Virus record (IMG/VR): IMGVR_UViG_3300032304_000539
Span: 1 to 22,252 of that record
Strand: one strand, 5' to 3'
Source: a virus
Length of the DNA stretch: 22,252 bases
A program made the translations under genes and the position numbers. Of this stretch, positions 1-22,252 are shown piece after piece (positions within the stretch are counted from its first letter, which is position 1; every line of letters starts with the position of its first letter). A model generated the notes under the pieces. The model searched no databases. It was not told the origin of the DNA and saw only the letters and a program-made list of their open reading frames with translations.

Positions 1-566
1 ATTTCTTCAACCATTGAAGCAACTTTGTTTACTTCACGTGGTTTGTAGTTAAATAATCCTTCAACGCTGAACCCGGCAATTTCGCCATTTTTAACCTTTT
101 GCCACGCTTCTTCGTTGTCAACAATCATTGACCCGAACCAACTTCCAACCGGTGCGTCTTCAAATCCTTTCATTGGCATAATACCACGCGAAGGGTCTGA
201 AATAAAGCTTTCAAATAATGTAACACCTTCAAATTGTGCGTTTGAATCGTGCATTAAATTGACGTTACTTTGAAAACCCTTCTTAAAAAACTTCTGAACA
301 ATTTTAAGAATAGTGTCTTTACTAAAAGCAACATAATAATCGCCATATGTAGAATCGCTGCGAAAAATAGGACTGTCAGCCAACATAATAGCACCACTAA
401 TAATACGACGGTCTTCATTTGCAATTTCAAATTTTTGTCTTTTATTAAATGCGTTCCAATTCTTTTGGATTGCGGGACGGTCAACCAATGCAATAAAATC
501 AACCTGTGCGTCGTCATTTATGTCTTCTGTAATATCCAACATAAAAATTGGTAAATCTGTATTCAT
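1..566 (-). CDS. Prohead protease, XkdF-like (Peptidase_S78_2), 3' end cut off by window
   Basis: This is a partial gene. It starts at ATG 566-564 and is open to the window edge, giving 188 codons. The protein begins MNTDLPIFML. Its body follows the XkdF / S78_2 capsid-maturation protease pattern: ISGAIMLAD (about 56-64), a YYVAFSKDT segment (77-85), NVNLMHD with a candidate catalytic His (H106), GSWFGSM (141-147) and GFSVEG with a candidate catalytic Ser (S167). Known members cleave scaffold and capsid proteins during head assembly. The catalytic residues are assigned from memory of the family and not by alignment. The gene follows the tape-measure gene after 34 bases. That is unusual, because this protease normally sits next to portal and capsid, so the head genes probably continue beyond position 1. 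An 87-aa minus-strand frame at 254-517 is a shadow of it. Confidence 0.85.
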   Translation of the reverse strand, partial: MNTDLPIFMLDITEDINDDAQVDFIALVDRPAIQKNWNAFNKRQKFEIANEDRRIISGAIMLADSPIFRSDSTYGDYYVAFSKDTILKIVQKFFKKGFQSNVNLMHDSNAQFEGVTLFESFISDPSRGIMPMKGFEDAPVGSWFGSMIVDNEEAWQKVKNGEIAGFSVEGLFNYKPREVNKVASMVEE

Positions 567-600
567 AACACTAAATAGTTTATTTTTTAATAATTATCGT

Positions 601-2883
601 TTATTCAAATCGCGCCCTGTTTTGAATGTCTGCGTCACGGCTTTGTGCGTCTGTAATGTCACGTTCAACAACGTATGCACGAATTGCACCACCACCACCG
701 CCGCCGCCTGTGTCACCGCCGCCACCACCACCTAAAGACGGCGTTCCGCCACCGCCTAAAGACGGCATTGACCCGCCACCACCTGTTGAAGGTGCGCCCG
801 GTGAAGGAATGTCAACAAAGCCGGGTTCAGAAGAACCGCCCGGAACTTCAGGCGCTTTAACCGCTAAAATGGCTTTAACATTCTTTAAACCCGCAGCAAT
901 TGCCGCAGCCGCAGCAACCGCACCCAAAACCGGACCGACAACAGGAATACCCGCCAAAGACTTAAATGCCGCCGTTGCTGACATATAAGTATCAATTGTT
1001 GTTGCAGCAATCGCAGCCGCCTTACCTGCAACCGTATGTTCCCCAATTGCCTTTGCTGCGTTCTTTAATGTTGAACTAATCTTTTGTGCGTTTTCTGCAC
1101 GTGCAGCCGCTTCTTTTTTGCTAATTTCAACCCTTGCGTCGCTTAATTCCTTTTCAGTTTTGGTATATGTTTCAGCATCAATTTTACCTTCTTTTAAAAG
1201 TTTTTTATTTAATGCCAATGCGTCGTCAACACCTTTTTTCCTTGCTTCGTATGAAAGGTTTTCATTATTAACAATAGAATCCAAACGTTCCTGTTCTTTG
1301 TCGTCAGCTTCTTTTACATATTTTGCGTCAATTTCAGCAACTTCAGCGCCATATTTTTCACGTAAAGCGGCAACCATTTTACCCTTCTGTTCTTCTGTGT
1401 AATCCGCATTGTCAAGTACCTTTTTAGTTTCAGCTTCCAAAGCTTCGTCCAATGCAGCAATTTCCTTTTCTTTGCCTTCTTTTAATTTAGCAACACGTGC
1501 TTCTGATAATGTCGCTTGTAAATCTTCTTCAAACTTTTTATCCTTTTCAGCGCGGTCAGCTTTTATTTGGTCGTCAATTGCCTTAACTTCTAATTGATAA
1601 GCTTCTTCTGTTGCCTTCTTTAATTCGTTCTTTGTTTTTGTATCAACCTTTAAAGCGTCAATTTCAGCAACACGCGCTTTCATATTTATTTCAGCCTGTT
1701 TCTTTGCCTTGTCGTCTTCTGAAGTTATTTCAGCCAATGCCTTTTCATTCTGAAGGTCAACAAGCATTTTGTCAGCCGTCTTTTTGTCTGCAATAGCTTG
1801 TTTATTATCTTCTTCACGTTTCTTTTTAGCATCTTCAGCCGCTTTTTTATTATCGTCAGCAATCTTTTTATTATAGTCAGCCGTCAAAACCAATTGTTCA
1901 GTCTTTAAACTTCTGAATTGTTTTGCTTCTTCTTCTGTTAAACTACCTTTAGTTTTTAAGCTTTCACGTAAAGTTGAAAGTTCATTTTCAACCCTTTGTT
2001 TTCCTAAATCGTAAATTTCCTTTTCTGAACCGCCTTGCGCCTTTAATACTTTAATACGATTTTCAATATCTTCGTTTGCTCGTTTATTTGATGCCGATAA
2101 TTTATCTAAATTGCGTTGCGCTTCACTTGTAACCCCAATAAAGTCTGTAAATTGTTCAACTAAACTTCCAATACCATTTGCCAAAGCACCCAAAGGACTG
2201 CTTTTAATCCATTTTGAAATTGCGTCAAAGTTATTTATTACTTCACCCAATAAAACAACCAATGCACCAATACCGGTTGCAACAATTGCACCCTTTAAAA
2301 CTTTAAATCCTGTTGAAGTTGTTTCAACTGATATCCCAAACGAACGTTGCACCGCCGCAGCCGTTTTTGTTGCTGCGTTGTTTAATTCCTGAAACGTCGT
2401 TGTACTTTTAATAACCGCGCCCAATTGTTTGAACGAATCCACACTTTCACCAACCGCCTGTAAACCTTGCGACAATGCCATTGCTGCATTCACCTTCAAT
2501 AAAGCTTTTTCAACGTCTTTATTCTCATTGCCAAACAAAGCCATTGCACCCTGAAGCGCACTAAATCCACCTGCAACACCTGCCAATGAAGAAGCAACCG
2601 CCTTAAATTTCGCGTCCGGGTTAAACGCATCTGTTAACGCCTTTGCGTCACCAATACGGTCTTTTAAGTCAGCCGCACGTTTAGCCGCGTTAATAGCTTC
2701 TTTTGAAGTCGCGCCAAACTTGTCAGCCATTAAACCAACGTCTGCCTGTGCTTCTTTTAATTGCGTTCTTAAACTTTTAACCGACTTGTCTGTTTCGTCA
2801 AATGCTTTGTCTAATAATTGAACGTCCTGCGCAGCCTGTGCCGCGTTGGTGGTGACGTTTATCCCAATAGTTTCTTCTACCAT
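601..2883 (-). CDS. Tail tape-measure protein
   Basis: The protein has 760 residues and sets tail length in long-tailed phages. It is alanine-, lysine- and glutamate-rich with long helical/coiled-coil stretches (about 255-600). One hydrophobic segment lies near 197-215 (VATGIGALVVLLGEVI) and a longer one near 640-672 (GPVLGAVAAAAAIAAGL), typical of tape measures that insert into the host membrane. The C-terminus is unusual: a glycine-rich stretch at about 700-732, partly built from a repeated PSLGGGG unit, followed by a conserved-looking end (AYVVERDITDAQSRD). The start ATG overlaps the stop of the upstream 692-aa gene by one base (TAATG), suggesting coupled translation. Proline-rich plus-strand frames at about 626-988 are shadows of the glycine repeat. 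Confidence 0.9.
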   Translation of the reverse strand: MVEETIGINVTTNAAQAAQDVQLLDKAFDETDKSVKSLRTQLKEAQADVGLMADKFGATSKEAINAAKRAADLKDRIGDAKALTDAFNPDAKFKAVASSLAGVAGGFSALQGAMALFGNENKDVEKALLKVNAAMALSQGLQAVGESVDSFKQLGAVIKSTTTFQELNNAATKTAAAVQRSFGISVETTSTGFKVLKGAIVATGIGALVVLLGEVINNFDAISKWIKSSPLGALANGIGSLVEQFTDFIGVTSEAQRNLDKLSASNKRANEDIENRIKVLKAQGGSEKEIYDLGKQRVENELSTLRESLKTKGSLTEEEAKQFRSLKTEQLVLTADYNKKIADDNKKAAEDAKKKREEDNKQAIADKKTADKMLVDLQNEKALAEITSEDDKAKKQAEINMKARVAEIDALKVDTKTKNELKKATEEAYQLEVKAIDDQIKADRAEKDKKFEEDLQATLSEARVAKLKEGKEKEIAALDEALEAETKKVLDNADYTEEQKGKMVAALREKYGAEVAEIDAKYVKEADDKEQERLDSIVNNENLSYEARKKGVDDALALNKKLLKEGKIDAETYTKTEKELSDARVEISKKEAAARAENAQKISSTLKNAAKAIGEHTVAGKAAAIAATTIDTYMSATAAFKSLAGIPVVGPVLGAVAAAAAIAAGLKNVKAILAVKAPEVPGGSSEPGFVDIPSPGAPSTGGGGSMPSLGGGGTPSLGGGGGGDTGGGGGGGAIRAYVVERDITDAQSRDADIQNRARFE

Positions 2884-7255: not shown

Positions 7256-7740
7256 AAAAAAACCAACGAATGATAAACGTGTATAAAATTCGCTTCCTGC
7301 ATATCCGCAGCGTATTCTTCGTGTTTACTTGCGTCGTACTTGTCGTCAATCCATTTGCCGTACCAATTTTTTTTCTGCGGGATAACCATTGACGCAGCTA
7401 TTTTGTGCAAGTTACCTAATGTGTCTGTACTAAATACCTTGCTTTCAATATAACGCGCTGACGGCATATTTTTAATGTCGTAGTTTATTCGGTATCTTTT
7501 GCCGTTGGTTGTAATATAGTCAACCGGCTTCCCTTCAATTGGTTCGTCTAAAAATGCCAAATCTTTGCGCAGTTCTTTTAAGTCTTCAATGCCTAAACTG
7601 TCAATTTGATATTCGGTTAAACCTGTGACAATGCACAATAATTTAACTTCCTTATCCAATTCTGTCCAATCCTTATTCGGGTTTGTTATTATTGGCATCA
7701 ATTGTTGATATTGCCAAAGGGTCAGTTCGTTCCATTTCAT
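7066..7740 (-). CDS. Tail assembly chaperone (G-like), 0-frame product
   Basis: The protein has 224 residues and begins MKWNELTLWQYQQLMPI. The N-terminal half has the short-helix pattern seen in Bacteroidetes phage tail chaperones: a stretch near EVKLLCIVTGLTEYQIDSL (30-49), an ELRKDLAFLDEPIEGK segment, and a later NLHKIAASMVIP. Codons 161-162 are TTT TTT inside a nine-T run, where a -1 slip leads into a second open frame. Its start lies inside the DUF5522-like gene, a 68-base overlap. The chaperone call rests on the frameshift architecture and position before tail genes as much as on sequence. Confidence 0.7.
   Translation of the reverse strand: MKWNELTLWQYQQLMPIITNPNKDWTELDKEVKLLCIVTGLTEYQIDSLGIEDLKELRKDLAFLDEPIEGKPVDYITTNGKRYRINYDIKNMPSARYIESKVFSTDTLGNLHKIAASMVIPQKKNWYGKWIDDKYDASKHEEYAADMQEANFIHVYHSLVFFYQVYRNWIEITRDYMKTEMTTAGMTTEQADSVLLLLCESTGGIIPPNLLPNTKISELRKLLK
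7254..7262 (-). other. Candidate -1 programmed ribosomal frameshift site (U9)
   Basis: The coding strand reads G GTT TTT TTT TAT in the 0 frame. The heptamer T TTT TTT lets both P- and A-site tRNAs re-pair after a -1 slip, and the next codon would be TTA at 7255-7253. The -1 frame is then open for 90 codons to 6983. The -1 frame is closed by a TAA about 70 bases upstream and has no ATG between that stop and the run, so frameshifting is the natural way to express it. No strong downstream stem-loop was identified by eye. Confidence 0.75.
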
Positions 7741-7864
7741 AATTCAAAGTTAAGTCTTTTTTCTGATAAGGACAATGCCGACAACCATTTTTGCAGCAAT
7801 ACCCCCTTTTTAAATGATATTCTTCTGTAAATACCTTAAATCCGTTTTCTAAATAGTAATCCAT
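7673..7864 (-). CDS. DUF5522-like small Cys-rich protein
   Basis: The protein has 63 residues: MDYYLENGFKVFTEEYHL, then KRGYCCKNGCRHCPYQKK. The cysteine cluster C-C-x(3)-C-x(2)-C with HLKRGYCC matches the short DUF5522 family known from Bacteroidetes chromosomes, probably a metal-binding protein of unknown function. Family members usually end soon after the CPY motif. Here about 28 more residues overlap the chaperone gene in another frame (68 bases), so the tail may only reflect where the next stop falls. The start overlaps the upstream gene's end by 16 bases. Confidence 0.7.
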   Translation of the reverse strand: MDYYLENGFKVFTEEYHLKRGYCCKNGCRHCPYQKKDLTLNYEMERTDPLAISTIDANNNKPE

Positions 7865-8211
7865 TTTTTTAATCCGTTAGCACTTGACATAATTGCGTCA
7901 GCGCGTTGCGTTAAGCTTTCAATTTGCCCGTTTAGTTCGTCCGCGTCGTATGATATATAATAACCATTTGACGTCCCAATAACAGGCAATATTCCTTCTG
8001 ACCTTATAAAGTTAACGATTTTACGCAAACGCGGTTCAGAAAATTGTTTAATTCCGTACCTTTCTTTTTGCCCGTTAATGGCTGCGACTATTTCCGCGCC
8101 TTTAATTGGGTTGGCTTTGCTTTTCAGGTTTAAACCACTGATAATTACAGGCACTAATCTTTTTTCGTCCGGCGTTAATTCGCAGGTAATTTCTTCAAAG
8201 TTTTTTATCAT
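7849..8211 (-). CDS. Winged-helix-like DNA-binding protein, unassigned
   Basis: The protein has 120 residues: MIKNFEEITCELTPDEKRL, a long helix with VPVIISGLNLKSK, then KGAEIVAAINGQKERYG, SEPRLRKIVNFIRSEGILPV and a wing-like GTSNGYYISYDADEL. The helix-turn-helix plus beta hairpin layout suggests a winged helix, with a C-terminal helix IESLTQRADAIMSSANGLKK. It could regulate this phage's promoters or have another DNA role. It is preceded by a structured leader (8231-8289) and shares its start context with the gene at 8786-8938. Confidence 0.65.
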   Translation of the reverse strand: MIKNFEEITCELTPDEKRLVPVIISGLNLKSKANPIKGAEIVAAINGQKERYGIKQFSEPRLRKIVNFIRSEGILPVIGTSNGYYISYDADELNGQIESLTQRADAIMSSANGLKKWITI

Positions 8212-8230
8212 TGTATAAGCTTTTAAATAT

Positions 8231-8289
8231 CCCCGCCCGTGACATAACTAAACACCCCTGTTTAAAATTGATTGTTGAATTGGACGGGG
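8231..8289 (-). promoter_or_regulatory. Structured 5' leader with nested hairpins
   Basis: On the minus strand CCCCGTCC (8289-8282) can pair with GGGCGGGG (8238-8231), an 8-bp stem with one wobble. Inside its loop TAAACA-GGGG-TGTTTA (8264-8249) is a perfect 6-bp hairpin with an all-G loop. The structure ends 19 bases upstream of the ATG at 8211, so it could control translation of the winged-helix-like gene. The GGGGTG core recurs in the two hairpins at 8955-8984 and 20451-20472. No named riboswitch class was recognised. Confidence 0.55.
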
Positions 8290-8298
8290 ACAATGTTA

Positions 8299-8472
8299 TT
8301 AATTAATGTCTGCCATTGCTAAATTAACCATTTTTAATTGAATCCTTAAATCTTTATTTTCCTTTTCTTTTAATCCCAATTCCTTTTCAATCTTTGCAAT
8401 CCTTTCAATTAAGCATTCGTTTTCAAGGCGAAGCAAATATTCCTGACCCATTAAGTAATTATTCTTTGACAT
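8299..8472 (-). CDS. Small coiled-coil protein, 57 aa
   Basis: It starts at ATG 8472-8470 and stops at TAA 8301-8299. The protein begins MSKNNYLMGQEYLLRLENEC and continues as one long charged helix (ERIAKIEKELGLKEKENK) with heptad-like spacing, ending NLAMADIN. The start sits in AACCTATG, a context also found in front of the genes starting at 10755 and 19971. I do not recognise a family. The gene is supported by continuous frame, amphipathic coding pattern and location between two structured RNA elements. Confidence 0.65.
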   Translation of the reverse strand: MSKNNYLMGQEYLLRLENECLIERIAKIEKELGLKEKENKDLRIQLKMVNLAMADIN

Positions 8473-8475
8473 AGG

Positions 8476-8547
8476 TTATTTGTTTACAAGTTTATAAAAT
8501 GTGGCTTTTGCCAATTCCCAAAGTATTATTATTAAAATGATTTTCAT
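8476..8547 (-). CDS. Possible 23-aa membrane peptide
   Basis: This tiny frame starts at ATG 8547-8545 and ends at TAA 8478-8476. The product is one hydrophobic helix followed by a short basic tail (MKIILIIILWELAK, then ATFYKLVNK). It begins immediately after the U-run of a compound hairpin, and its stop lies 3 bases before the next start codon. It has the look of a small phage membrane peptide, but a frame this short can occur by chance. Confidence 0.35.
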   Translation of the reverse strand: MKIILIIILWELAKATFYKLVNK

Positions 8548-8553
8548 AAAATT

Positions 8554-8625
8554 AAAAAAGCCGCCCAAAGTTAACCCAAATTACTACGTTTGTTATTTTT
8601 TAATATTAAAAATGCTTCAGGCGGC
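8554..8625 (-). terminator. Compound terminator-like hairpin
   Basis: On the minus strand GCCGCC (8625-8620) pairs with GGCGGC (8565-8560), with an extra AAG/CTT-type pairing after a 2x2 internal loop, and six T follow directly. The large loop holds a perfect 16-base palindrome, TTTTTAATATTAAAAA (about 8597-8612). It lies just past the stop at 8632. The wide loop makes it weaker than the hairpin at 6921, so it may only reduce transcription or protect RNA 3' ends. Confidence 0.5.
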
Positions 8626-8631
8626 GTAAGT

Positions 8632-8784
8632 TTAAATTCTGTTTATTTTGTCCTGTTCAATTTGATTGTCAGCGTCAATTTCGTCTTCGTCTTCTTCTTC
8701 CCAATCGCAATGTTCTAAACAATCCGGGCAAATATCAATTTCAGGAAAATTGGTGTGCGCACCGCAACAAGTTGAATATGGCAT
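8632..8784 (-). CDS. Small Cys-rich acidic protein, 50 aa
   Basis: It starts at ATG 8784-8782 and stops at TAA 8634-8632. The protein begins MPYSTCCGAHTNFPEIDICP and continues DCLEHCDW into a very acidic run (EEEDEDEID) and a C-terminal DQDK/N-rich end. CCGA near the start plus CPDC and a further Cys suggest a single zinc-binding knuckle. Its start lies one base past the previous gene's stop. The function is unknown; small Cys-knuckle proteins of this kind are common in Bacteroidetes phages. Confidence 0.7.
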   Translation of the reverse strand: MPYSTCCGAHTNFPEIDICPDCLEHCDWEEEDEDEIDADNQIEQDKINRI

Positions 8785-8785
8785 A

Positions 8786-8938
8786 TTATAAGTTTTCAAT
8801 TAAAGCCGTTAACAATAAAGCTACCGTAATAATCGCGAAGAACCAACCCATACCCAAAGATTCTTTGGCGTATTGCTTTTGCATTGCTGCATAATGTTCG
8901 TTTAATTTGTCCTGTTGTGTTTTTAGTCTGTTTTGCAT
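8786..8938 (-). CDS. Small C-tail membrane protein, 50 aa
   Basis: It starts at ATG 8938-8936 and stops at TAA 8788-8786. The first 29 residues form a charged helix (MQNRLKTQQDKLNEHYAAMQ); then a single membrane span follows (GWFFAIITVALLLTALI), ending ENL. It could be an accessory lysis or membrane protein, but nothing shows that. The leader (TTTAAAACTTATACAATG) nearly matches that of the gene starting at 8211. It directly follows the conserved GGGGTGCG hairpin. Confidence 0.65.
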   Translation of the reverse strand: MQNRLKTQQDKLNEHYAAMQKQYAKESLGMGWFFAIITVALLLTALIENL

Positions 8939-8954
8939 TGTATAAGTTTTAAAT

Positions 8955-8984
8955 GTGCGTTGGACAGTCGCACCCCTGCGGGGG
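8955..8984 (-). promoter_or_regulatory. GGGGTGCG hairpin, copy 1
   Basis: On the minus strand GTGCG (8973-8969), loop ACTGTCCAA and CGCAC (8959-8955) form a 5-bp hairpin. Just upstream CCCC-CGCA-GGGG (8984-8973) forms a second 4-bp hairpin that shares one base with it. It lies between the 98-aa gene and the 50-aa membrane-protein gene, at the same place in its cassette as the copy at 20451. It is a likely intercistronic RNA control or processing element. Confidence 0.6.
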
Positions 8985-8989
8985 ATAGG

Positions 8990-9309: not shown

Positions 9310-9342
9310 CAAATATAACACAGGTTTTATACACATTCCAAA
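9310..9342 (-). promoter_or_regulatory. Bacteroidetes-type promoter P-left
   Basis: On the minus strand TTTG (9342-9339), 21 bases, then TATATTTG (9317-9310) fits the Bacteroidetes consensus TTTG / TAnnTTTG. An AAAACCTGT segment shortly before the -7 box is shared with the promoter at 20769. The start codon of the 98-aa gene lies 24 bases further on. Tandem operator-like repeats lie upstream. Confidence 0.8.
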
Positions 9343-9368: not shown

Positions 9369-9400
9369 GTGATGAACGGTAAATAATAATGATAAACGGT
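9369..9400 (-). promoter_or_regulatory. Tandem operator-like repeats, left copy
   Basis: Two direct 12-base repeats read on the minus strand: ACCGTTTATCAT (9400-9389) and ACCGTTCATCAC (9380-9369), start-to-start 20 bases. The first overlaps the last base of the terminase stop codon. They lie upstream of P-left and match the pair at 20807-20838, so they are likely binding sites for a phage or host regulator. An origin iteron is an alternative. Confidence 0.7.
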
Positions 9401-10551
9401 TAAGCGAATGCGTAACGACCATTCCCGCGTTTGACATTGTGGTTTTGCCACGCTAAAGCCAAAGCCATTACGGTATCGTCGTGGAATCCTGAAGGCGCTG
9501 AATACCTTACACCGTGTGCAGTAAACTGATATTCAAAAACGTCCAATTCGTCCACAATAACCCCTTCCGGGAATCCGATTCGTCCCTGTTGAATGGCTGA
9601 CGCTAAACCTTCCATTAACTGTTGTTTGGATTGACTTGTAAACTTTAAACCTTCAATGTTTACACCTTCACGAAGCAAGTCTTCAAGTATCGGGTCGCCA
9701 ACCCCTGTTGAATCCACAACAATTGGCGCAGGTGGCAACCTTTTAATTGTTTCTTTGGTATTATGCCAATCCATTTGAAAGCGGTCAAAATAAGCCACGT
9801 TGCCGTCCTTATCCAATCCAATTATAACTGTAAAATCCACAGACTTTGCAAGGTCAATACCATAACAAACAATTGGTTGCGCTGAAATAGGTTTGACGCA
9901 GCGTTTAATAAATGCGTTGCCAAAAGGGTTTGCGCTATTCTCGGACGGATTCGCCATATATTCCTGTTCAAATACAACTTCAGGTAATTGAATTCGTGCT
10001 TCGTCTATTTCGCGCGGGTTAATATGCGGGTTATCGTATGTGCTAAATTTAAAGCTTTGCCAATCGTTTTCGCCCATTTTCATAAACAGGGAATAAAAGA
10101 AGTTTTTGCCGCGTGGTGTTGAAAGGAAAACCGCCTTCCCTTCATAGTCGGTCAGCGTCGGGCGTATGCTATTATTCCAACCGTCTTCAAGGTCAGCAAT
10201 AAATGCAGCTTCGTCAATAATAACCAAATGGAACTTACGACCGCGCAAATTGTCCAATCGTTCGCCGGTAAAAAATTCAATTGACCCTTCGTTGGGACAA
10301 TAGATTTTCAGCTTTGAAATATTGCTTTTAAATGGTAATACTTTTGTAAGGCGTTCAAAGAATACTTGCGCCAATCCGTATGTCGGTGTTATGTATGCAA
10401 CCTGTCCGCCATTTAATGCTTCTTTGATTATAAGTATTTGCGACAATTCAGACTTACCAAAACGACGTCCACACATAACAACAACAAAACGCCTTTCAGC
10501 GTCCAATATCTTTTTTTGGTTTACGTGTGGCGTTGGTAATTCAATGCGCAT
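9400..10551 (-). CDS. terL: Terminase large subunit
   Basis: The protein has 383 residues and is the DNA-packaging motor with ATPase and nuclease domains. ATPase motifs: Walker A-like CGRRFGKS (27-34), Walker B LVIIDEAAF (109-117, D113/E114), coupling motif LSTPRGKN (143-150). Nuclease (RNase H-like) acidic residues: YGIDLAKSVD (D233), IVVDSTGVGD (D280) and FHDDT (D358/D359). It is complete though on the short side for TerL. It follows a 67-aa gene with an overlapping start and is preceded two genes earlier by a TerS candidate. The next gene after it is not a portal, which is unusual. Confidence 0.96.
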   Translation of the reverse strand: MRIELPTPHVNQKKILDAERRFVVVMCGRRFGKSELSQILIIKEALNGGQVAYITPTYGLAQVFFERLTKVLPFKSNISKLKIYCPNEGSIEFFTGERLDNLRGRKFHLVIIDEAAFIADLEDGWNNSIRPTLTDYEGKAVFLSTPRGKNFFYSLFMKMGENDWQSFKFSTYDNPHINPREIDEARIQLPEVVFEQEYMANPSENSANPFGNAFIKRCVKPISAQPIVCYGIDLAKSVDFTVIIGLDKDGNVAYFDRFQMDWHNTKETIKRLPPAPIVVDSTGVGDPILEDLLREGVNIEGLKFTSQSKQQLMEGLASAIQQGRIGFPEGVIVDELDVFEYQFTAHGVRYSAPSGFHDDTVMALALAWQNHNVKRGNGRYAFA

Positions 10552-11171: not shown

Positions 11172-11294
11172 TTACCTTCCCTGACCTTTGTACGCTTTTG
11201 GTCGTGGATTGTGTTTGTTAAAGCTTTTTTTCGCGTGTCCGCACTTTCTTTTACCGAAATTAGTCTTTTGACTGTCCCCTTTAATCTTTGCCAT
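11172..11294 (-). CDS. Very basic 40-aa protein
   Basis: It starts at ATG 11294-11292 and stops at TAA 11174-11172. The protein (MAKIKGDSQKTNFGKRKCGH, then a Lys/Arg/Asn-rich end finishing YKGQGR) is strongly positively charged and may bind nucleic acid. Its start lies inside the last codons of the HNH gene (14-base overlap), so translation is probably coupled. Similar short KxxNFGKRKxGxAKKS-type proteins are, as I recall, common next to HNH genes in Bacteroidetes phages. Confidence 0.7.
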   Translation of the reverse strand: MAKIKGDSQKTNFGKRKCGHAKKSFNKHNPRPKAYKGQGR

Positions 11295-11538
11295 TTATTG
11301 CCTTTTTATGCTTATCTTTTAAATATTCCAAATGTGTCTTTGTGTCCCCCATAACGACGTGACAATAACGACAAAGCGCCATTAAGTTTTCAATCCTGTC
11401 CTTTTGTTTAGTTCCGCCCATTCCCCTTGCTTCAATATGGTGAATGTCAACCGCTTTGTTCCCGCATACTTCGCACGGAATAAAGTCTTCAATTCCGTAC
11501 CCAAAGTAATCCAAATAAATTTTAGTATAATTTTTCAT
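11281..11538 (-). CDS. HNH endonuclease
   Basis: The protein has 85 residues from the ATG at 11538 (MKNYTKIYLDYFGYG). The longer frame to 11565 adds nine residues, but the internal ATG gives the usual family N-terminus and a short 17-base overlap with the preceding gene's end. The zinc and active-site pattern is CEVC (22-25), DIHHIEARGMGG (31-42), NLMALC and CRYCH (56-60). HNH nucleases next to terminase genes commonly assist DNA end formation in packaging; that role is inferred. Confidence 0.9.
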   Translation of the reverse strand: MKNYTKIYLDYFGYGIEDFIPCEVCGNKAVDIHHIEARGMGGTKQKDRIENLMALCRYCHVVMGDTKTHLEYLKDKHKKAINGKD

Positions 11539-11704
11539 TAAATATGGTAAAACTAACTGCGACAAATATTAAGCCAATTGCAACTGAATTATGGAATTCT
11601 GTATTTTCGTCAATTGCTTCACCAATGTTTATGCCTAACAATATATTGCGCGGCAATAAATGAATTGAAATCCTAAAGTTATAAAACTGAATAAAGTATT
11701 CCAT
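11522..11704 (-). CDS. Small protein with hydrophobic C-terminal strand or span, 60 aa
   Basis: It starts at an ATG that overlaps the HAD-protein stop (TAATG at 11706-11702) and ends at 11522 inside the HNH start region. The protein begins MEYFIQFYNFRISIHLLPRN, continues ILLGINIGE, and ends with SVAIGLIFVAVSFTIFNEKLY. The alternating pattern could be a beta hairpin or a short membrane span. Similar small proteins of the RISIxLxPRNxLLGI type occur in other Bacteroidetes phages as I recall. Its function is unknown. Confidence 0.65.
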   Translation of the reverse strand: MEYFIQFYNFRISIHLLPRNILLGINIGEAIDENTEFHNSVAIGLIFVAVSFTIFNEKLY

Positions 11705-12444
11705 TATTGGTTGTCAATTTGTTTTAATTTCCTTTGCGCCCATTCAATACCTTCAGTTCCACCCCACGCGTCCCACATTAAACCGCCGCAACCTTCTTCG
11801 TATGGTACGTCTTTATTTTGTTGGTGACGCTGAAAAGACGCCATTCGTGCAATCGTATCGCGTGAAATTGGTTCTTTGTTTGCTAATTGGTTTGCCCTTG
11901 CTTTGCCAACAGGTGTTCCGCATTCACCCCAACCGTTTGTTTCTGCGTATTTTAACGCCCTTTTTGCGTTGTTTGTTGCTGCTTCCGGATAATCGGTGTA
12001 TGAATCCACAAAAGCGAATTTTATACCCTTTGCGGTCGTTTTAGAATTAATCAATTCAATTTCACGGGCGTTGTTATCGTAGTGTGTACCGATTCCGTAA
12101 TGTCTTATTGTTTCCCACTTATAAGCGCCATTTGTAAATTTAACCCTGCTTTTTGGAATTCCTAATTCTTCAGCTACTTTGTAAACTTCTTCACTTGCGC
12201 TTTGTTGTCTTCGTGTAACTATGTAAACTGTTTTACCTTCTGCAATTAGTTCTTTTGCTTTGTTAAATCCTTTTTCAGTCGTTAAAGTGTCGTCAAAATC
12301 AAAACTAACTTTGTTTGAATCCGCAGCGTAAGCGCCTGAAGCTAAAATTGCCGCCCAAACGCGGTTCGCCTTTTCTTCTGTATCATAAATACAAGCACCT
12401 GACCCAATTCTGTATTTCCCGTTTGAACATTTAATTACCGGCAT
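11704..12444 (-). CDS. Composite HAD-like hydrolase with phage-type N- and C-terminal modules
   Basis: The protein has 246 residues in three parts. Residues 1-40 (MPVIKCSNGKYRIGSG, CIYDTEEKA) resemble a short module often found at the start of phage head-related proteins. Residues 45-150 form a HAD domain: VSFDFDDTLT (nucleophile D49, D51), YIVTRR (T77), a Lys at K109 and HYDNN (D123). Residues 155-246 (NNAKRALKYAETNGWGECGT then VGKARANQLA, DTIARMASFQRH, GGLMWDAWGG, IEWAQRKLKQ) match a C-terminal module seen in Bacteroidetes phage protease or head proteins. Possible roles include polynucleotide or sugar-phosphate phosphatase. Its start overlaps the glycosyltransferase end by 14 bases. Confidence 0.75.
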   Translation of the reverse strand: MPVIKCSNGKYRIGSGACIYDTEEKANRVWAAILASGAYAADSNKVSFDFDDTLTTEKGFNKAKELIAEGKTVYIVTRRQQSASEEVYKVAEELGIPKSRVKFTNGAYKWETIRHYGIGTHYDNNAREIELINSKTTAKGIKFAFVDSYTDYPEAATNNAKRALKYAETNGWGECGTPVGKARANQLANKEPISRDTIARMASFQRHQQNKDVPYEEGCGGLMWDAWGGTEGIEWAQRKLKQIDNQ

Positions 12445-13438
12445 TGCTAATTAGTTTATTGTAAATAGCAAAACGGCGTTTGTTTACTTCGTGCAGGTTG
12501 AAGTTCTTATTGCAATACTCGTACAACGCGTTCCCGTAGCTTTTACGGGCGTCAGGGTCTTTGGTTAACAACTTAATCCAATAATACCAATCCTTTTGAC
12601 TATTGACGTGACAAGCGGGATAAAAACCCTTGTACGGGTGAACGTTGCTGACAATTGCCGGGTTCTTCTTTGCCGCAGTTTCAAGTACCTTCAAATTAGA
12701 CTTCATTGAATTAAATTTGGAATCAATTAACGGAATAACTGAAATGTCAGAATCGCAATAAGCCGCCATATATGAAGTCACTTCATTGTAATTGTATATT
12801 TTAGGGTTCAGTTTCAATCCGTTAGTAAATGCCGCAATCATTCCGTCCCAAATTGGCTTTTCGCCTTCGTTGTACCCTGCAATTATAGTTTTAACCGGGA
12901 AATTGATTCGCTTCATTGGGTTACGTAATATTTCCATATCCTTCCCGTGCGTTCCCGAACCTGACCAAAACAAACGGACAAGTTCTGATTCTGTTTTGTA
13001 ATCCTTAAATTGTTCTTCGCCGTATGGAATAGCATTTGGTAATATTTCAACATTCTGATTATATGCGTAAACTTCTTCAGCCAATCGTTCGTGCGTAACT
13101 GTGCAAAGGTCGGCAATCTTCAGCCAATTAATTATTTGTTGCGGGACGTCGTTTAAAACATATCGTTCATAAAGTATATGTGAAGGGTCAAGCTTCCAAT
13201 AATCGTCGTTGTCAACTACTAATTTAAAACCGTACTTTTTGCGCCATTCAAACATTTGTTCGGGCGTTATGTTTGCCAACATACGATTCATAACAACAAT
13301 GTCATAATTCCCTTCAAAAGTTTCTTCGCTTATTGTATCGGTCATTAAACAATAATCCTTCTTCATATTTACCAACGGCATCATAATCCTATGATAACCA
13401 ACCCCACTTGTTTTGCTCGTAATCGCTAAAATGCGCAT
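12431..13438 (-). CDS. Glycosyltransferase, GT4-like (GT-B fold)
   Basis: The protein has 335 residues. It begins MRILAITSKTSGVGYHRIMM, a GT-B N-terminal Rossmann pattern with a Gly-rich turn. It then has VVDNDDYW (74-81), a VTHERLAEEV helix (114-123), ILPNAIPY (132-139), and a C-terminal domain with SDISVIPL (230-237), SNLKVLETAA (247-256) and PAIVSNVHPYKGF, which match the acceptor/donor region of GT4-type enzymes. Such enzymes move a sugar from a nucleotide-sugar to a glycan. It overlaps its neighbours by 13-14 bases and forms one unit with the GT2, methyltransferase and acyltransferase genes. Confidence 0.85.
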   Translation of the reverse strand: MRILAITSKTSGVGYHRIMMPLVNMKKDYCLMTDTISEETFEGNYDIVVMNRMLANITPEQMFEWRKKYGFKLVVDNDDYWKLDPSHILYERYVLNDVPQQIINWLKIADLCTVTHERLAEEVYAYNQNVEILPNAIPYGEEQFKDYKTESELVRLFWSGSGTHGKDMEILRNPMKRINFPVKTIIAGYNEGEKPIWDGMIAAFTNGLKLNPKIYNYNEVTSYMAAYCDSDISVIPLIDSKFNSMKSNLKVLETAAKKNPAIVSNVHPYKGFYPACHVNSQKDWYYWIKLLTKDPDARKSYGNALYEYCNKNFNLHEVNKRRFAIYNKLISNAGN

Positions 13439-14115
13439 TTAATTAGTTTTTCATAATGATAAATTGGTTGGTATTTTTCCCAAACCGCCTGTGCGCGCAT
13501 TAAACTTTCGTCCTTCATACGTCTGTATTCTGTACCGTTGCCAACGTCGTGTCCAATATGTTCTGAACTTAATTCAGGTAAATAATAATTAGTAAACCCG
13601 GCAATGATTGCGCGTTCTGCATAATCCCTATCTTGCATTCCGTAAGGGTCGTATTCGGTATTATAACCGCCAATAGTGTCAATTAATTCCCTTGTAATAA
13701 AATTATTACCAAATGGTACGTGTGTTTTATGTATTCCGTCAACCAATGGCGGCAATTCTTCAACGCAATGTATGCCAATAATCCCTGTTTTTGACACACG
13801 TTTTGAAAACATAACCCAATTTGACAACCAATTGGTTGGCAATAGTATGTCATTTGCCAATATACAAACGCCGTCGTATTCCTGTGTTATAGATAAACCA
13901 AAATTGACACCTGCGGCAATACCCCTTTTATGAAGTGACCAATTTGAATAATGCCAATTGTAATATTTTTGTATTTCGGTAAACTGTTCTTCGTCGCTTC
14001 CATTGTCAATAAGATAACAATGCGCGTCGTGACCGCTATTGTAAAAATTCCTGTCAATAACCTGTTTTGTTAGGTCTGACCTATTTTGCGTTAATAATAT
14101 TACGGCTATCTTCAT
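13426..14115 (-). CDS. Glycosyltransferase family 2 (GT-A fold)
   Basis: The protein has 229 residues. GT-A features: MKIAVILLTQNRSDLTKQVI at the start, LIDNGSDEE (35-43) for nucleotide binding, GIAAGVNFGL (65-74), and CILANDILLP (84-93), where N-D replaces the first part of the usual DxD. MQDRDYAERA (160-169) and EHIGHD (185-190) supply likely catalytic and metal-binding residues. It should add a sugar to a glycan, polysaccharide or protein. The start overlaps the methyltransferase gene by 35 bases. Confidence 0.9.
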   Translation of the reverse strand: MKIAVILLTQNRSDLTKQVIDRNFYNSGHDAHCYLIDNGSDEEQFTEIQKYYNWHYSNWSLHKRGIAAGVNFGLSITQEYDGVCILANDILLPTNWLSNWVMFSKRVSKTGIIGIHCVEELPPLVDGIHKTHVPFGNNFITRELIDTIGGYNTEYDPYGMQDRDYAERAIIAGFTNYYLPELSSEHIGHDVGNGTEYRRMKDESLMRAQAVWEKYQPIYHYEKLIKCAF

Positions 14116-14701
14116 AACTTATGTATGTTTTACTTTCGGGTTTATCAATAATTAAACTATATTCGTTTTGTTTCATTATTTCGTTTATTTTATTCCAACC
14201 TATTGTAAGTTTGTGTGTACCCTCGTAACCAACCCAATTATTACCGTCGTCTGTCAAAGGTGATTCAAAATGAATGTATTTAACCCCTTTGCAATATTTA
14301 GCTAACTGTTCAAAATGTTCGTTGCTTAAATGTTCAATAAAATGTGTTGCAATAATAATATCGGCTTTTATTGTTCTTTTATCTGTAAACCAATCAAATT
14401 TTGTAGGCTTAATATAATTAACTTCTTTACATTTAGTTGAACGAATTGCAGCTTCGCAAATTTCTATACCGTACCAACCTGATAAATTAAAGTCTTGCAA
14501 AGCTTGTTTAGCTAAATCGCCCTTCCAAGTTCCGAATTCTAAAACAACTGCATTATTACATAACAATAAAGCTTCCTTTACATTATCATAGTTATAATGA
14601 TTTTGTTCAGGATAACGTGCTTCTAATTCATTATGATAAGTTATTTGCTCATCAATTGTCATTGTATCGTAGCGTTCACGCCACTTGTCAAATTCGTTCA
14701 T
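14081..14701 (-). CDS. SAM-dependent class I methyltransferase
   Basis: The protein has 206 residues. Motif I is VVLEFGTWKGDLA (52-64), followed by GWYGIEICEAAI (75-86), the acidic loop of a Rossmann-like methyltransferase, and DIIIATHFIEHL (114-125) as motif IV. The C-terminal part FESPLTDDGNNW with KLTIGWNKINEIM is less typical. No DNA-methylase motif (NPPY, DPPY or PC) is present, so sugar, glycan or small-molecule methylation is more likely, in keeping with the surrounding sugar genes. It overlaps the acyltransferase gene by four bases (ATGA). Confidence 0.85.
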   Translation of the reverse strand: MNEFDKWRERYDTMTIDEQITYHNELEARYPEQNHYNYDNVKEALLLCNNAVVLEFGTWKGDLAKQALQDFNLSGWYGIEICEAAIRSTKCKEVNYIKPTKFDWFTDKRTIKADIIIATHFIEHLSNEHFEQLAKYCKGVKYIHFESPLTDDGNNWVGYEGTHKLTIGWNKINEIMKQNEYSLIIDKPESKTYISYEDSRNIINAK

Positions 14702-15750: not shown

Positions 15751-16247
15751 TTTCTAATATTTGTTTTCATTAATTTTTTGGTTTTGTTTATAGTTCTGAC
15801 AATGGACATATAAGGAATTCCTGTTTTTCTGCTTAATTCTTTTGCGTTCTTCTTAAAGTCAATCGCATACAGTTTCAAAATTTCCTTATTGTACCAATGT
15901 AAATCTTCTAAATTCCTTTCAAGTTTTTCAAACAATTCTGTCGGTTCTTCGTTTAGTCGCGTCAATTCCTTGTTTACTTCATTGCCAACAAATTCCGTGT
16001 AATTCCTGTAATTCTTATAAAATGTACTTCTGTCGCTTTTAATCATATTTAACATTATTCGCACAATGTAAAATTTTAATTCGCTTCTTTGATACATTCC
16101 AACCAACTTTGATTCGTCCATTTCGCAAAGAACTAAAAAAACTTCAGCTTTTAAATCATACTGCAATTCTTCAGGTTGCATTTTCCCAAAGGCGTCGTTG
16201 ACTTCCTTTGAATCCCAATATTCCGCTAAAATTTCATTTTTGACCAT
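15747..16247 (-). CDS. Sigma-70-like transcription regulator
   Basis: The protein has 166 residues. The N-terminal half has a region-2-like helical pattern (DLKAEVFLVLCEMDESKL, FYIVRIMLNMIKSDRSTFYK, about 31-79), and the C-terminal half a region-4-like helix-turn-helix (NAKELSRKTGIPYMSIVRTI, about 134-153) preceded by NKEILKLYAI. This is the layout of small phage sigma factors or late regulators of the RinA/ArpU type. It could recognise the two matching promoter modules in this window, though that is not shown. It overlaps the VRR-NUC gene by 22 bases and the membrane-protein gene by four. Confidence 0.7.
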   Translation of the reverse strand: MVKNEILAEYWDSKEVNDAFGKMQPEELQYDLKAEVFLVLCEMDESKLVGMYQRSELKFYIVRIMLNMIKSDRSTFYKNYRNYTEFVGNEVNKELTRLNEEPTELFEKLERNLEDLHWYNKEILKLYAIDFKKNAKELSRKTGIPYMSIVRTINKTKKLMKTNIRK

Positions 16248-16540
16248 TCAATTAAAGTTGGTTTATTGTCCACTTCAGTACAAATATACACAATTCCACC
16301 ACATTCGTAAATATCTTTTAACCTTTCTTTTTGTTCCACGCTTAATCGGTCACCAATCTTTTTGACTTCAACCGCAACATAAACGCCGTTTTCTGTGTAC
16401 CCTTGTAAGTCCGCCCAACCTTTTTGAATAGTCCCTTTACGCTGCCCAAATGGAATATTGTTTACCCTGTTTAATCTGTAACCAATGTTTTCAAGGTTTG
16501 ATTTTGCCCACTTTGTAAGTTCGTTTGCTGATATATCCAT
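16226..16540 (-). CDS. VRR-NUC nuclease
   Basis: The protein has 104 residues of the PD-(D/E)XK superfamily. It has GWADLQGY (41-48, D44), VAVEVKK with the E-x-K pair E58/K60, and SVEQKERL with Q70, then GGIVYICTE. Stand-alone phage VRR-NUC proteins are believed to act as structure-specific nucleases such as Holliday-junction resolvases. It belongs with the recombination and replication genes upstream. Its 5' end overlaps the 71-aa gene by 70 bases. Confidence 0.88.
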   Translation of the reverse strand: MDISANELTKWAKSNLENIGYRLNRVNNIPFGQRKGTIQKGWADLQGYTENGVYVAVEVKKIGDRLSVEQKERLKDIYECGGIVYICTEVDNKPTLIEWSKMKF

Positions 16541-19027: not shown

Positions 19028-19423
19028 TTATAAGTTTATTTTGGCTTTTTCCCAACTTAAAATTGAACGAATGGCGTCTAATTGGTGAACAGAAGAAGCG
19101 TTAATTCTGTCAAATGCGTTTTTTAAACGTGACCATTCACGCGCCTTGCTTTTAACCCACATATTTACAGTTGAAGTTGCCAATTTACCTTCCATTATTT
19201 CGTGGATTTTGTCGCCAATTTCCATATCAATAACGCATTCAATCTTATATTCTGCGGCGGTTCTGTATTCGCCTGATTGTGTCATTGCAACGTTTAGTGT
19301 GTCCAATCGTTTAATCAAAGCGTCGTGATAATCCGCCGAATCATTTTTAGGCAATGGCATCTGTAAATAATCCAACATTTTTTCCGCCTTAATCGTTAAT
19401 TCTTCAATGGTATATTCGCGCAT
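19028..19423 (-). CDS. Unknown helical protein next to ERF, 131 aa
   Basis: The protein begins MREYTIEELTIKAEKMLDYL and is helical throughout. It has a central GEYRTAAEYKIECVIDMEIG, then TSTVNMWVKSKAREWSRLKN. Its start overlaps the ERF stop by one base (TAATG), suggesting a joint role in recombination. The WVKSKAREWSRLKNAFDRI segment recalls small helpers found beside phage annealing proteins, but I cannot name a family. Confidence 0.65.
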   Translation of the reverse strand: MREYTIEELTIKAEKMLDYLQMPLPKNDSADYHDALIKRLDTLNVAMTQSGEYRTAAEYKIECVIDMEIGDKIHEIMEGKLATSTVNMWVKSKAREWSRLKNAFDRINASSVHQLDAIRSILSWEKAKINL

Positions 19424-19971
19424 TATTTATTAATTTGGTTTGCTTGTAATACTTTAAATGCTTTGTTATAATCGTCTTCTTTTGTAAACGATTCAATTTT
19501 AATTGCCATTTTATTCTTTTTGTCTTCTGTAAACGGCGTGTTTTCTAATAAAGTCTGTAAATATAAACGTTTATCGTCACCAACTTCGTCTTTATGTTCG
19601 TTGGTTGCGTCTGCGTCTTTTGTATCATCAATCGCAAACAGTCCGTTTAATGCGTATTTACGCGCATACGAAGAAGCTGACCCGGTTATTTGTGCAGCGT
19701 CCATTCCTTTCTTAACTTCTTCTTCACGCGCCCAACCGTGTGCGCTAATTGAATTTTCTTCGTCTGTTAATAATGTCGCAGTTGCTTTGACATAAATTCT
19801 GTCACCAACTTGCACAATTTCGTCACTAATTATTAAACAGGTTTTTTCTTTTGCCAATATTGGCTTAACCACTTCAATAATGTCTTCGGCGCTTCTGTAC
19901 CTGTAATTGCCGAACTTGTTTAATTGACCCTTTGGCGCTTTTAATTCTGCCTGAATTTTGTAAATGTTCAT
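19423..19971 (-). CDS. ERF-family single-strand annealing protein
   Basis: The protein has 182 residues. ERF marks: YRSAEDIIEVVKPIL (25-39), a beta segment VKATATLLTD (61-70), and AQITGSASSYARKYALNGLF (93-112) followed by AIDDTKDADA. ERF proteins anneal complementary single strands and help circularise or recombine phage DNA. It sits in a recombination group with the exonuclease (upstream), the SSB-tail protein and the VRR-NUC nuclease. The start is in the AACCTATG context. Confidence 0.92.
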   Translation of the reverse strand: MNIYKIQAELKAPKGQLNKFGNYRYRSAEDIIEVVKPILAKEKTCLIISDEIVQVGDRIYVKATATLLTDEENSISAHGWAREEEVKKGMDAAQITGSASSYARKYALNGLFAIDDTKDADATNEHKDEVGDDKRLYLQTLLENTPFTEDKKNKMAIKIESFTKEDDYNKAFKVLQANQINK

Positions 19972-21465: not shown

Positions 21466-21646
21466 TTGTTTTTAGTTTTATAAGTTTTTTTAAATAAATT
21501 GACAAGTCCAACGCTTCTTCGTAGGCGTGTTGTAACCAATCAATTTCCGTTAGGTCTGTTCTGTCCATTGTTGTACCGTATTCCTTAATTCCTTTGTCTT
21601 CACGTGCCAACAAATCGTCAATAATTGTATATAGGATTTTGCTCAT
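21440..21646 (-). CDS. MazG-like small helical protein, 68 aa
   Basis: The protein begins MSKILYTIIDDLLAREDKGI and continues KEYGTTMDRTDLTEIDWLQH, then AYEEALDLSIYLKKLIKL. The K/REYGT, D-W-L-x-H-A-Y-E-E-x-L-D pattern with a final helix resembles short all-alpha NTP pyrophosphohydrolase-like (MazG-type) proteins of phages, although key metal-binding Glu residues would need alignment. Its start overlaps the exonuclease stop by one base. Confidence 0.55.
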   Translation of the reverse strand: MSKILYTIIDDLLAREDKGIKEYGTTMDRTDLTEIDWLQHAYEEALDLSIYLKKLIKLKTNENAKGIQ

Positions 21647-22252
21647 TATTTGTCTGTTTTGGAATGAAATTTATTGCAAACTTTACATTTGTATTGAATA
21701 CGGGTTAAGCCGGTTGCGGTTACAACTGAATTATTTTTAATAAGGTCTTCAGAACCCGCGCCACATTCAGGACACGAACCCCTGTCTTGACCAAATACAA
21801 CGCCGTAATGCGTCTTTGGTGCAATATGGTTGCCTAATAATTTATAAACTTCTTCTAATAATGAAACGTCCTTTTTACAGTATTTAATCATTTTTTCCAT
21901 TGCAACCTTGTCTTTGTTCAACAGAATATCCTTCCAAAGATTAAATTCGGTTTTGATTTTCCCGCCTAAACCTAAAAATTCGGCAATGTAATTTAGTCTG
22001 TTTGATTGAAAACGGAATTTAGAACGGGCAACCTTTAGCGTGTCAATTGTCTGATAATTTGGGAACATATCAATCCCGTGAAATAAACAACGGGTTCTTA
22101 TCCACGCCAAATCAAACTTGTCGCCATTGTGACCAACCAATTCGTTTGCAGTATTTGCAACCGCAATAAATTGTTCCAACATTCTTTTGTCATTCTGTTT
22201 GGCGTCCCATTGTAAAGCATAAACTTCCTTTTCGTCTTGCCATTTATAACAA
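21646..22252 (-). CDS. DnaQ-like 3'-5' exonuclease with C-terminal zinc ribbon, 5' end cut off by window
   Basis: The frame is open to the right edge, giving 201 residues of a longer protein; the Met at 22182 is internal. Visible motifs: LVGHNGDKFDLAWI (Exo II type, with N and D) and MIKYCKKDVSLLEEVYKLL (Exo III type, Y-x(3)-D). The Exo I motif (D-x-E) should lie outside the window. The tail carries CPEC and CKVC pairs, a zinc ribbon. Such RNase H-fold exonucleases process DNA ends; with ERF downstream it could form a two-part recombination pair. A proofreading or polymerase-linked role is also possible. Confidence 0.8.
   Translation of the reverse strand, partial: CYKWQDEKEVYALQWDAKQNDKRMLEQFIAVANTANELVGHNGDKFDLAWIRTRCLFHGIDMFPNYQTIDTLKVARSKFRFQSNRLNYIAEFLGLGGKIKTEFNLWKDILLNKDKVAMEKMIKYCKKDVSLLEEVYKLLGNHIAPKTHYGVVFGQDRGSCPECGAGSEDLIKNNSVVTATGLTRIQYKCKVCNKFHSKTDK

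What the first reader, a model, noticed from the sequence alone, without database searches (positions are those of the whole stretch)
1..22252. Complete absence of GATC, CATG, TCGA, GGCC and CTAG in 22 kb
Reading every GAT, CAT, TCG, GGC and CTA on the given strand, including across line breaks, I found none completed to the palindrome. GAT, GGC and CTA each occur on the order of a hundred times or more, and CAT and TCG several hundred times each. Under independent bases at about 36% G+C roughly 70 copies of GATC, CATG, TCGA and CTAG and about 20 of GGCC would be expected. Other 4-bp palindromes (CCGG, GCGC, CGCG, ACGT, GTAC, TGCA, AGCT) are present, so this is selective. Codon bias (few ATC and CGA codons) explains part of it, but zero for five sites points to strong selection, most simply by several host restriction systems. 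CTAG alone is often rare in bacteria.
Basis: partly seen in the sequence, partly recalled or inferred. Interest (0 to 1): 0.75.

Follow-up and report, generated by a model that had tools for sequence, protein, structure and literature searches.

The report
Phage purged of many restriction sites
This uncultured phage has removed about twenty different short DNA words, most of them known cutting sites of bacterial restriction enzymes, from its genome, and its close relatives show individual words returning or disappearing, as if tracking the enzymes of their hosts.

Summary
Pooled with two relatives, about 20 words are eliminated or nearly so.

One 63-kb contig holds two ~31-kb phages, about 89% identical. 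One half has 0 GATC, the other 30, while CATG, GGCC, CTAG, CCAG and ACAGC stay at 0-1 in both. Among 1,516 substitutions between window and first half, 0 GATC arose (19.6 expected); in the other half 21 (25.9 expected). Most control words arise near expectation.

Best explanation: strong, current, reversible selection by sequence-specific host cleavage, mostly Type II restriction, over a varied host population. The kind is known; the breadth is unusual: 13 of 168 words eliminated against 0-3 in 11 named phages. CCAG, ACAGC, RGAG and GAN8TC match no listed enzyme. The host is probably Chitinophagaceae, not Flavobacteriia; matching enzymes were almost not found there.

The parts
1..22252 (.). 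whole window, about 70% of a ~31-kb phage genome; zero GATC, CATG, TCGA, GGCC, CTAG, CCAG, GGAG, ACAGC, CTNAG, GGNNCC, CCNNGG
   Evidence: genome size inferred from the two-genome contig
9400..10551 (-). terminase large subunit, used to find and order 80 relatives
   Evidence: PHROG phrog_2 E 3e-45; Pfam Terminase_6N; loci, tree
601..2883 (-). tail tape measure protein
   Evidence: phrog_1538 E 3e-9
3..566 (-). phage serine protease XkdF-like, cut by the window end
   Evidence: Pfam Peptidase_S78_2 E 5e-15
7673..7864 (-). DUF5522 protein, with short DNA similarity to genomes of the suspected host genus
   Evidence: Pfam PF17653 E 4e-19
11281..11565 (-). HNH endonuclease
   Evidence: Pfam HNH E 1e-8
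12431..13438 (-). glycosyltransferase
   Evidence: phrog_7162 E 8e-61
14081..14701 (-). weak methyltransferase-domain match, below Pfam's cut-off; not a DNA methyltransferase family
   Evidence: Methyltransf_23 E 3e-5, 24.2 bits against a cut-off of 27
16226..16540 (-). small VRR-NUC endonuclease
   Evidence: phrog_93 E 5e-8; Pfam VRR_NUC E 1e-6
19423..19971 (-). Erf-like single-strand annealing protein
   Evidence: phrog_155 E 5e-42
21646..22251 (-). DNA polymerase exonuclease subunit, cut by the window end
   Evidence: phrog_403 E 2e-44

Best explanation
The phage genome has been cleared, and is still being kept clear, of the recognition sites of many sequence-specific DNA-cutting defences met in its host population, chiefly Type II restriction-modification systems. 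No DNA methyltransferase was recognised in it, so its unmodified genome would be cut in a restricting cell unless the site is absent. Mutations and imported genes that create a site are removed; when a host lineage lacks a given enzyme the word drifts back, for GATC at about the neutral rate, and when one is met the word is cleared. Shown here: absence, specificity, both strands, current purifying selection, gain and loss of words between relatives. Inferred: that the agent is restriction endonucleases, and that the roughly 20 words are the sum over many host strains and not one cell's arsenal.
For: (1) Codon-shuffled null: 0 observed against 15-71 expected for GATC, CATG, TCGA, GGCC, CTAG, CCAG, GGAG, ACAGC, CTNAG, GGNNCC. 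(2) Substitution relocation test, window to G001a, 1,516 substitutions, created/expected: GATC 0/19.6, CATG 0/19.9, TCGA 0/22.8, CCAG 0/25.2, CTNAG 0/16.2, GGAG 0/22.8, ACAGC 0/10.8, GAN8TC 0/20.3; words not avoided: TGCA 26/29.3, GTAC 17/14.6, CCGG 7/6.4, ACGT 26/18.1, but AGCT 8/18.6. G002 (95% identical) is a little less clean: CATG 2/13.4, TCGA 2/16.4, ACAGC 1/7.1, GATC 0/13.0. (3) Released lineage G001b: GATC 21/25.9 and GCNNGC 22/12.9 are present, while CATG 1/26.5, CCAG 1/32.3, GGCC 0/13.2, CTAG 0/9.9, ACAGC 0/13.6 are not. (4) The largest word differences between close relatives are enzyme-like specificities: GATC and CTAAG (G001b against L019), GCNNGC (L019 against G001a), GGCC (L073 against L072; also in L077 against L074, where CGTCA differs about as much); smaller differences in other words are also listed. 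(5) On a tree of 82 TerL genes the minimum number of avoid/present changes is GATC 5, TCGA 5, ACNGT 5, CCGG 3; TGCA, GTAC, GCGC, ACGT, AGCT are avoided in 0 of 78-82 scored rows. (6) Residual core sites in 14 clade members: 33 in 210.8 kb of shared backbone, 22 in 10.2 kb outside it (p 1e-15; without GGAG 19 and 11, p 5e-8). (7) 96 of 459 testable listed enzyme sites have O/E under 0.1 in three pooled genomes, many nested. (8) No DNA methyltransferase family among the 25 of 27 Pfam families shown for 47 phage proteins (35 of the window, 12 of G001b), nor by motif scan in G001, G002, G004, G017.
Against: In 147 genomes of the suspected host genus, DpnII-type 0, TaqI-type 0, HaeIII-type endonuclease 1; methyltransferases are sporadic (PF02086 over cut-off 12 of 147; PF00145 over cut-off 8 of 61). 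One of 147 genomes drawn from the family has DpnII. The host assignment itself is weak. CCAG, GAG, RGAG, ACAGC, GATGT, AGCCC, GCCCC and GAN8TC are not sites in the enzyme list held. Rusinov 2018 found avoidance mainly for orthodox Type II sites and none for Types I and IIG. AGCT, a control, is itself mildly low (8/18.6; 47/61). Presumed prophages L101/L102 with related TerL eliminate none of these words, as expected for temperate phages but no support.
Confidence: 0.85

Rival explanations
1. Codon usage, amino-acid content or oligonucleotide bias of the host explains the missing words without selection on the words.
For: Codon usage is skewed (GAA 469 against GAG 9; ATC 23, CGA 26), and CTAG is low in nearly all relatives.
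Against: Shuffles that keep codon usage and protein restore the words; both strands are depleted; GATC is back in a relative with about 89% identity.
Confidence: 0.03
2. A mutational process (deamination at methylated host motifs, directed repair) empties the sites; no selection on cutting is needed.
For: Methylated cytosine sites mutate fast (general knowledge); TCGA, GGCC and CCNNGG contain C.
Against: Mutation would remove old sites but not stop new ones: over the five window-clade comparisons (G001a, G002, L009, G017, L021; G002 and L009 are one contig) 0 GATC and 0-2 CATG or TCGA were created where 8-23 were expected. GATC and GAG would need a different process.
Confidence: 0.04
3. Avoidance of CRISPR PAMs explains the short asymmetric words (GAG, CCAG, GATG contexts), with restriction explaining the palindromes.
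For: PAM or motif depletion in phages has been reported (PMC12174588; PMC4246573; search listings with start of abstract only). The words are 3-4 bp and asymmetric.
Against: Genome-wide loss (CCAG 0 of 73 expected over both strands) is stronger than CRISPR escape should need, which only requires changes at matching spacers (inference). Of the short matches to the window in 147 genomes of the suspected genus, stretches from six genomes were inspected and none showed CRISPR-like repeats; that search was not made for spacers and can miss them.
Confidence: 0.08
4. The phage's own nucleases cut host DNA at these words, so the phage must lack them.
For: The window encodes a VRR-NUC and an HNH endonuclease.
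Against: One or two nucleases can hardly give about 20 separately gained and lost words; G001a and G001b, which differ in GATC, align over most of their length.
Confidence: 0.03

Closest known systems
Restriction-site avoidance by non-temperate dsDNA phages (Rusinov et al. 2018, PMC6286503; abstract, Results and first part of the Discussion read)
   Same: Near-total elimination (CB under 0.1) of Type II sites in a phage genome
   Different: There elimination concerns 7.1% of Type II phage-site pairs and under 0.5% for other types; here 13 of 168 short words (some overlapping) are eliminated in one genome, including asymmetric words that are no listed enzyme site. They do note the Type III site CAGAG, which contains GAG, as under-represented in 25 phages
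T7 and N4 low in GATC; phi29 without GGCC (known cases as I recall them)
   Same: The same scan shows them: GATC 6/123, GATC 1/145 in the first 50 kb, GGCC 0/18
   Different: One to three words per phage, not 13 of 168
Staphylococcus podovirus phiAGO1.3 (PMC6346686, start of abstract in search listing)
   Same: Wide host range attributed to lack or scarcity of restriction sites
   Different: Isolated phage with known hosts; phi44AHJD, a relative as I recall, has no word under the 0.1 threshold here
PAM depletion in phages (PMC12174588, PMC4246573; listings only)
   Same: Short motif depletion attributed to host immunity
   Different: Different effector; not restriction palindromes

Membership tests
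Restriction-site avoidance in a dsDNA phage | Words eliminated against a null that keeps protein and codon usage | tested here: met
Restriction-site avoidance in a dsDNA phage | Avoidance is word-specific; other palindromes are not avoided | tested here: met
   TGCA, GTAC, GCGC, ACGT, AGCT avoided in 0 of 82, 81, 80, 81, 78 scored rows; AGCT mildly low in the window clade
Restriction-site avoidance in a dsDNA phage | Both strands depleted (double-stranded DNA target) | tested here: met
   CCAG 0/32 and 0/41, GGAG 0/34 and 0/12, ACAGC 0/21 and 0/8, GAG 15/98 and 2/70 on the two strands
Restriction-site avoidance in a dsDNA phage | Current purifying selection, reversible when pressure ends | tested here: met
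Restriction-site avoidance in a dsDNA phage | Host encodes enzymes with the matching specificities | tested here: inconclusive
   true host not established; DpnII 0/147, TaqI 0/147, HaeIII-type 1/147 in the suspected genus
Restriction-site avoidance in a dsDNA phage | Avoided words are sites of known (mostly palindromic) Type II enzymes | tested here: inconclusive
   met for GATC, CATG, TCGA, GGCC, CTAG, CTNAG, GCNNGC, GGNNCC, CCNNGG, GGNCC, CASTG, GTMKAC, CTRYAG, CMGCKG, CAYN4RTG and for asymmetric GGATG, CGATG, GATGG; not met for CCAG, GAG, RGAG, ACAGC, GATGT, AGCCC, GCCCC, GAN8TC
Restriction-site avoidance in a dsDNA phage | Phage DNA carrying the site is cut in the host | not testable with these tools
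   needs host and phage in culture
Phage protected by its own methyltransferase | DNA methyltransferase gene in the phage genome | tested here: not met
   no DNA methyltransferase family among the 25 of 27 Pfam families shown for 47 proteins; motif scan negative in G001, G002, G004, G017. Some relatives do carry one

The most novel reading that the evidence does not exclude
The asymmetric words (RGAG within a depleted GAG, CCAG, ACAGC, GATGT) and the gapped GAN8TC are targets of undescribed sequence-specific defences in this host group, of a kind rarely reported to leave avoidance in phage genomes, and the clade differences let their specificities be read from phage sequence before any host is cultured.
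Probability: 0.4. Interest if true: 0.85.

Novelty: new variant of a known kind. Interest (0 to 1): 0.72.

Why it matters
In the 11 named phages scanned here restriction avoidance touches 0-3 words. In this phage about twenty words are held at or near zero at once, and close relatives provide a natural experiment in which words are released or cleared. That offers a measure of selection by host restriction in nature, a way to read the restriction repertoire of uncultured hosts from phage genomes, and candidate recognition sequences (CCAG, ACAGC, GAN8TC, RGAG) with no enzyme in the list held.

Tried and rejected
Codon bias and composition: rejected by codon-swap nulls. Inheritance from a site-poor ancestor: rejected by the substitution test. 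A special genome region as the reason for GATC in half of contig G001: rejected when the contig proved to be two related genomes end to end. GAG as one simple 3-bp motif: not settled; RGAG is nearly absent and YGAG only partly depleted, and the permitted contexts differ between clades.

The greedy search for further words was stopped by my time limit; beyond roughly 20 words its additions, many of them gapped words containing TAG or CTA, look like codon-context effects and are not claimed. The half-word expectation for gapped palindromes ignores reading frame and was replaced by codon shuffles.

CRISPR spacers: two short matches to one contig of G259 lie in a 9-kb stretch where no CRISPR-like repeats were found; stretches from five other genomes were looked at likewise. 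Host enzymes: searches gave little. A link between phage C5 methyltransferase and return of GGCC (L073, L077) is suggestive only: L076 and L078 have 3 and 7 GGCC without one in the part fetched, and L005, L025, L027 have such a gene but no GGCC.

Rows dropped and dependence: in the tree counts a row was scored only if the expected count was at least 6, and O/E between 0.15 and 0.4 was left unscored; L101, L102 and L004 (same contig as G001) were left out of 85 rows. The groups were picked by hand. One search made 11 comparisons from 9 contigs (G002 and L009 share one; L018 is nearly identical to part of G001b). One search used 14 clade members, whose contigs overlap in homologous regions, so its p-value treats related sites as independent. 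Searches pooled three related genomes. The 13 eliminated words overlap in part (AGAG, CCTC, CTCC share GAG/CTC). The 11 yardstick phages were chosen by me.
Full report
What is there. The window is a 22,252-base virus record with most genes on the minus strand: tape measure, terminase, glycosyltransferases, Erf, a polymerase exonuclease and others. A related 63-kb contig, G001, proved to be two genomes of about 31.3 and 31.9 kb end to end, about 89% identical in the two longest aligned blocks (blocks range from 80 to 93%), with a 90-base end repeat. The window is thus roughly 70% of such a genome. The best-ranked terminase in named phages is only 36% identical.

The observation. GATC, CATG, TCGA, GGCC and CTAG are each 0. 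With protein and codon usage held fixed, codon shuffles give 26.8, 46.1, 33.7, 15.4 and 17.4 copies, and the lowest of 200 shuffles gave 17, 31, 22, 6 and 7. The same null shows more words at zero: CCAG/CTGG (71 expected), GGAG/CTCC (47), CTNAG (33), ACAGC/GCTGT (28), GGNNCC (15), CCNNGG (10); GCNNGC is 1 of 27, GAN8TC 2 of 34, GAG/CTC 17 of 166. The asymmetric words tested are missing or rare on both strands, so the target is double-stranded DNA.

How many words. Pooling the window with G001a and G017 under a codon-swap null that already forbids the main words adds GTMKAC 0/38, CAYNNNNRTG 0/36, AGCCC 0/39, GCCCC 0/31, CCATC 2/93 and ACATC 4/94. A test of 459 listed enzyme sites found 96 with O/E under 0.1, many nested in one another, including CTRYAG 0/49, GTMKAC 0/41, CMGCKG 0/37 and CAYNNNNRTG 0/36. 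My reading is about 16 palindromic or gapped-palindromic words and 4-6 asymmetric ones. CCAG, GAG, RGAG, ACAGC, GATGT and GAN8TC are not sites in the enzyme list held. GAG is two-tiered: RGAG almost gone, YGAG partly; GATG survives mostly as WGATGM.

Yardstick. In a fixed set of 168 words (136 tetramer classes and 32 gapped palindromes), the window has 13 with O/E at most 0.1 (418 missing sites), G001a 14, G017 12, G005 11, G001b 7, C198 6, G011 5, G015 1. Eleven named phages have: phi29 3, 1961P 2, N4 (first 50 kb) 2, T7 1, c2 1, Flavobacterium 11b 1, and lambda, KHP30, phi44AHJD, FCL-2, 2972 none; the two Pollutibacter loci have none. The 13 words overlap in part, and the eleven phages were chosen by me, not sampled.

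Current selection. Substitutions between the window and relatives were relocated at random to sites with the same base and codon position. Against G001a (1,516 substitutions) no GATC, CATG, TCGA, GGCC, CTAG, CCAG, GGAG, ACAGC, CTNAG, GCNNGC or GAN8TC was created where 6-25 were expected. TGCA 26/29.3, GTAC 17/14.6, CCGG 7/6.4 and ACGT 26/18.1 arose near or above expectation; AGCT 8/18.6 did not. G017 is equally clean. G002 has CATG 2/13.4, TCGA 2/16.4, ACAGC 1/7.1, GGAG 1/14.6. Against G001b, GATC arose 21/25.9 and GCNNGC 22/12.9, CTNAG 10/23.2, TCGA 6/35.8, GGAG 9/35.3, but CATG 1/26.5, CCAG 1/32.3, GGCC 0/13.2, CTAG 0/9.9, ACAGC 0/13.6. GATC is also back in L017 (20/21.1) and, less, in L018 (6/13.4). 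GCNNGC is present too in G004, G005 and G006, so its loss is confined to the window's nearer relatives among those compared.

Turnover. On a terminase tree (82 rows scored) the least number of changes between avoided and present is GATC 5, TCGA 5, ACNGT 5, CCGG 3, CMGCKG 3, CCNGG 3 and 1-2 for the other words that vary; CATG changes once (72 rows avoid it, 7 have it). TGCA, GTAC, GCGC, ACGT and AGCT are avoided in none. Other clades have their own sets: most of L037-L071 have GATC and many have CCAG, while some lack CCGG, ACNGT, AAGCTT or GTSAC. In close pairs the largest differences are GATC and CTAAG (present in G001b, eliminated in its terminase sister L019) and GCNNGC (present in L019, eliminated in G001a); a few weaker words differ too.

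New DNA. In 14 clade members the remaining copies of 11 core words are 33 in 210.8 kb shared with the reference genomes and 22 in 10.2 kb not shared, taken to be newer DNA (p 1e-15). Half of the 22 are GGAG; without GGAG it is 19 and 11 (p 5e-8). In L005 all three remaining sites lie inside a C5 methyltransferase gene not recognised in the window. This fits imported genes arriving with sites and losing them.

Mechanism. These facts fit host cleavage at the words, with no methyltransferase of the phage's own: none among the 25 Pfam families shown (of 27) for 47 proteins (I did not see the other two), nor by motif scan in G001, G002, G004 and G017. That the cutters are mainly Type II restriction enzymes is inferred from the specificities. 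About 20 systems in one cell is unlikely; a population of hosts with different sets is more likely, which also explains the turnover.

Host. A Chitinophagaceae MAG (UBA8137) contains two contigs of this phage group, and Pollutibacter soli (Chitinophagaceae) has two presumed prophages with 59% identical terminase. The window's DUF5522 gene overlaps a stretch with 72-83% DNA similarity to 22 of 147 genomes of the MAG's genus. This points to that family but rests partly on metagenome binning. In those 147 genomes the endonuclease families DpnII 0, TaqI 0, HaeIII 1 were found, and methyltransferase families are patchy. This does not support the restriction reading and does not exclude it: endonucleases diverge fast and MAGs miss mobile islands (general knowledge).

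Literature. Rusinov et al. 2018 (abstract, Results, first part of Discussion) report elimination for 7.1% of Type II phage-site pairs and under 0.5% for other types, with none for Types I and IIG and few cases for Type III. Six searches listed no paper whose title or abstract start reports such a broad eliminated set in one phage; the library holds open-licence papers only and I read one of them, in part, so this is a weak negative.

Noticed in passing
L004 contig (IMGVR_UViG_3300043436_001856), 63,203 bases: One IMG/VR record is two related phage genomes joined end to end, apparently an assembly concatenation; treated as one genome it would hide the word difference.
   Followed up: yes
L005 11421-12194, L025 6779-7579, L027 6588-7376, L050 8081-9088, L073 1933-2706, L074 248-1621, L077 926-1699, L100 21-1085: Several relatives carry a C5 DNA methyltransferase that was not recognised in the window; L073 and L077 also have GGCC back (14 and 15 copies against 0 in L072, L074), but the link is not clean.
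   Followed up: partly
G021 contig C198 (L129, L130), 32,926 bases: A relative binned in a Chitinophagaceae MAG eliminates CATG, CTAG, GGCC, TCGA, GGNNCC, CCNNGG but not GATC.
   Followed up: partly
L051 7681-8817, L052 1035-2171, L068 1114-2280: Genes with N6-methyltransferase motifs (L051 also with a ParB-like N-terminal match) in relatives without CCGG.
   Followed up: no
window 7673-7864 (about 7763-7877 for the DNA match): A DUF5522 gene whose DNA is 72-83% similar to short stretches in 22 of 147 genomes of the suspected host genus, possibly taken from a host.
   Followed up: partly
window 9335-9367 and L123 3332-3364: A 33-base AT-rich stretch is 97% identical to one in a contig of another genome of that genus, possibly a shared promoter.
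   Followed up: partly
window 8212-8989: A 778-base stretch without an ORF of 60 codons or more on the coding strand.
   Followed up: no
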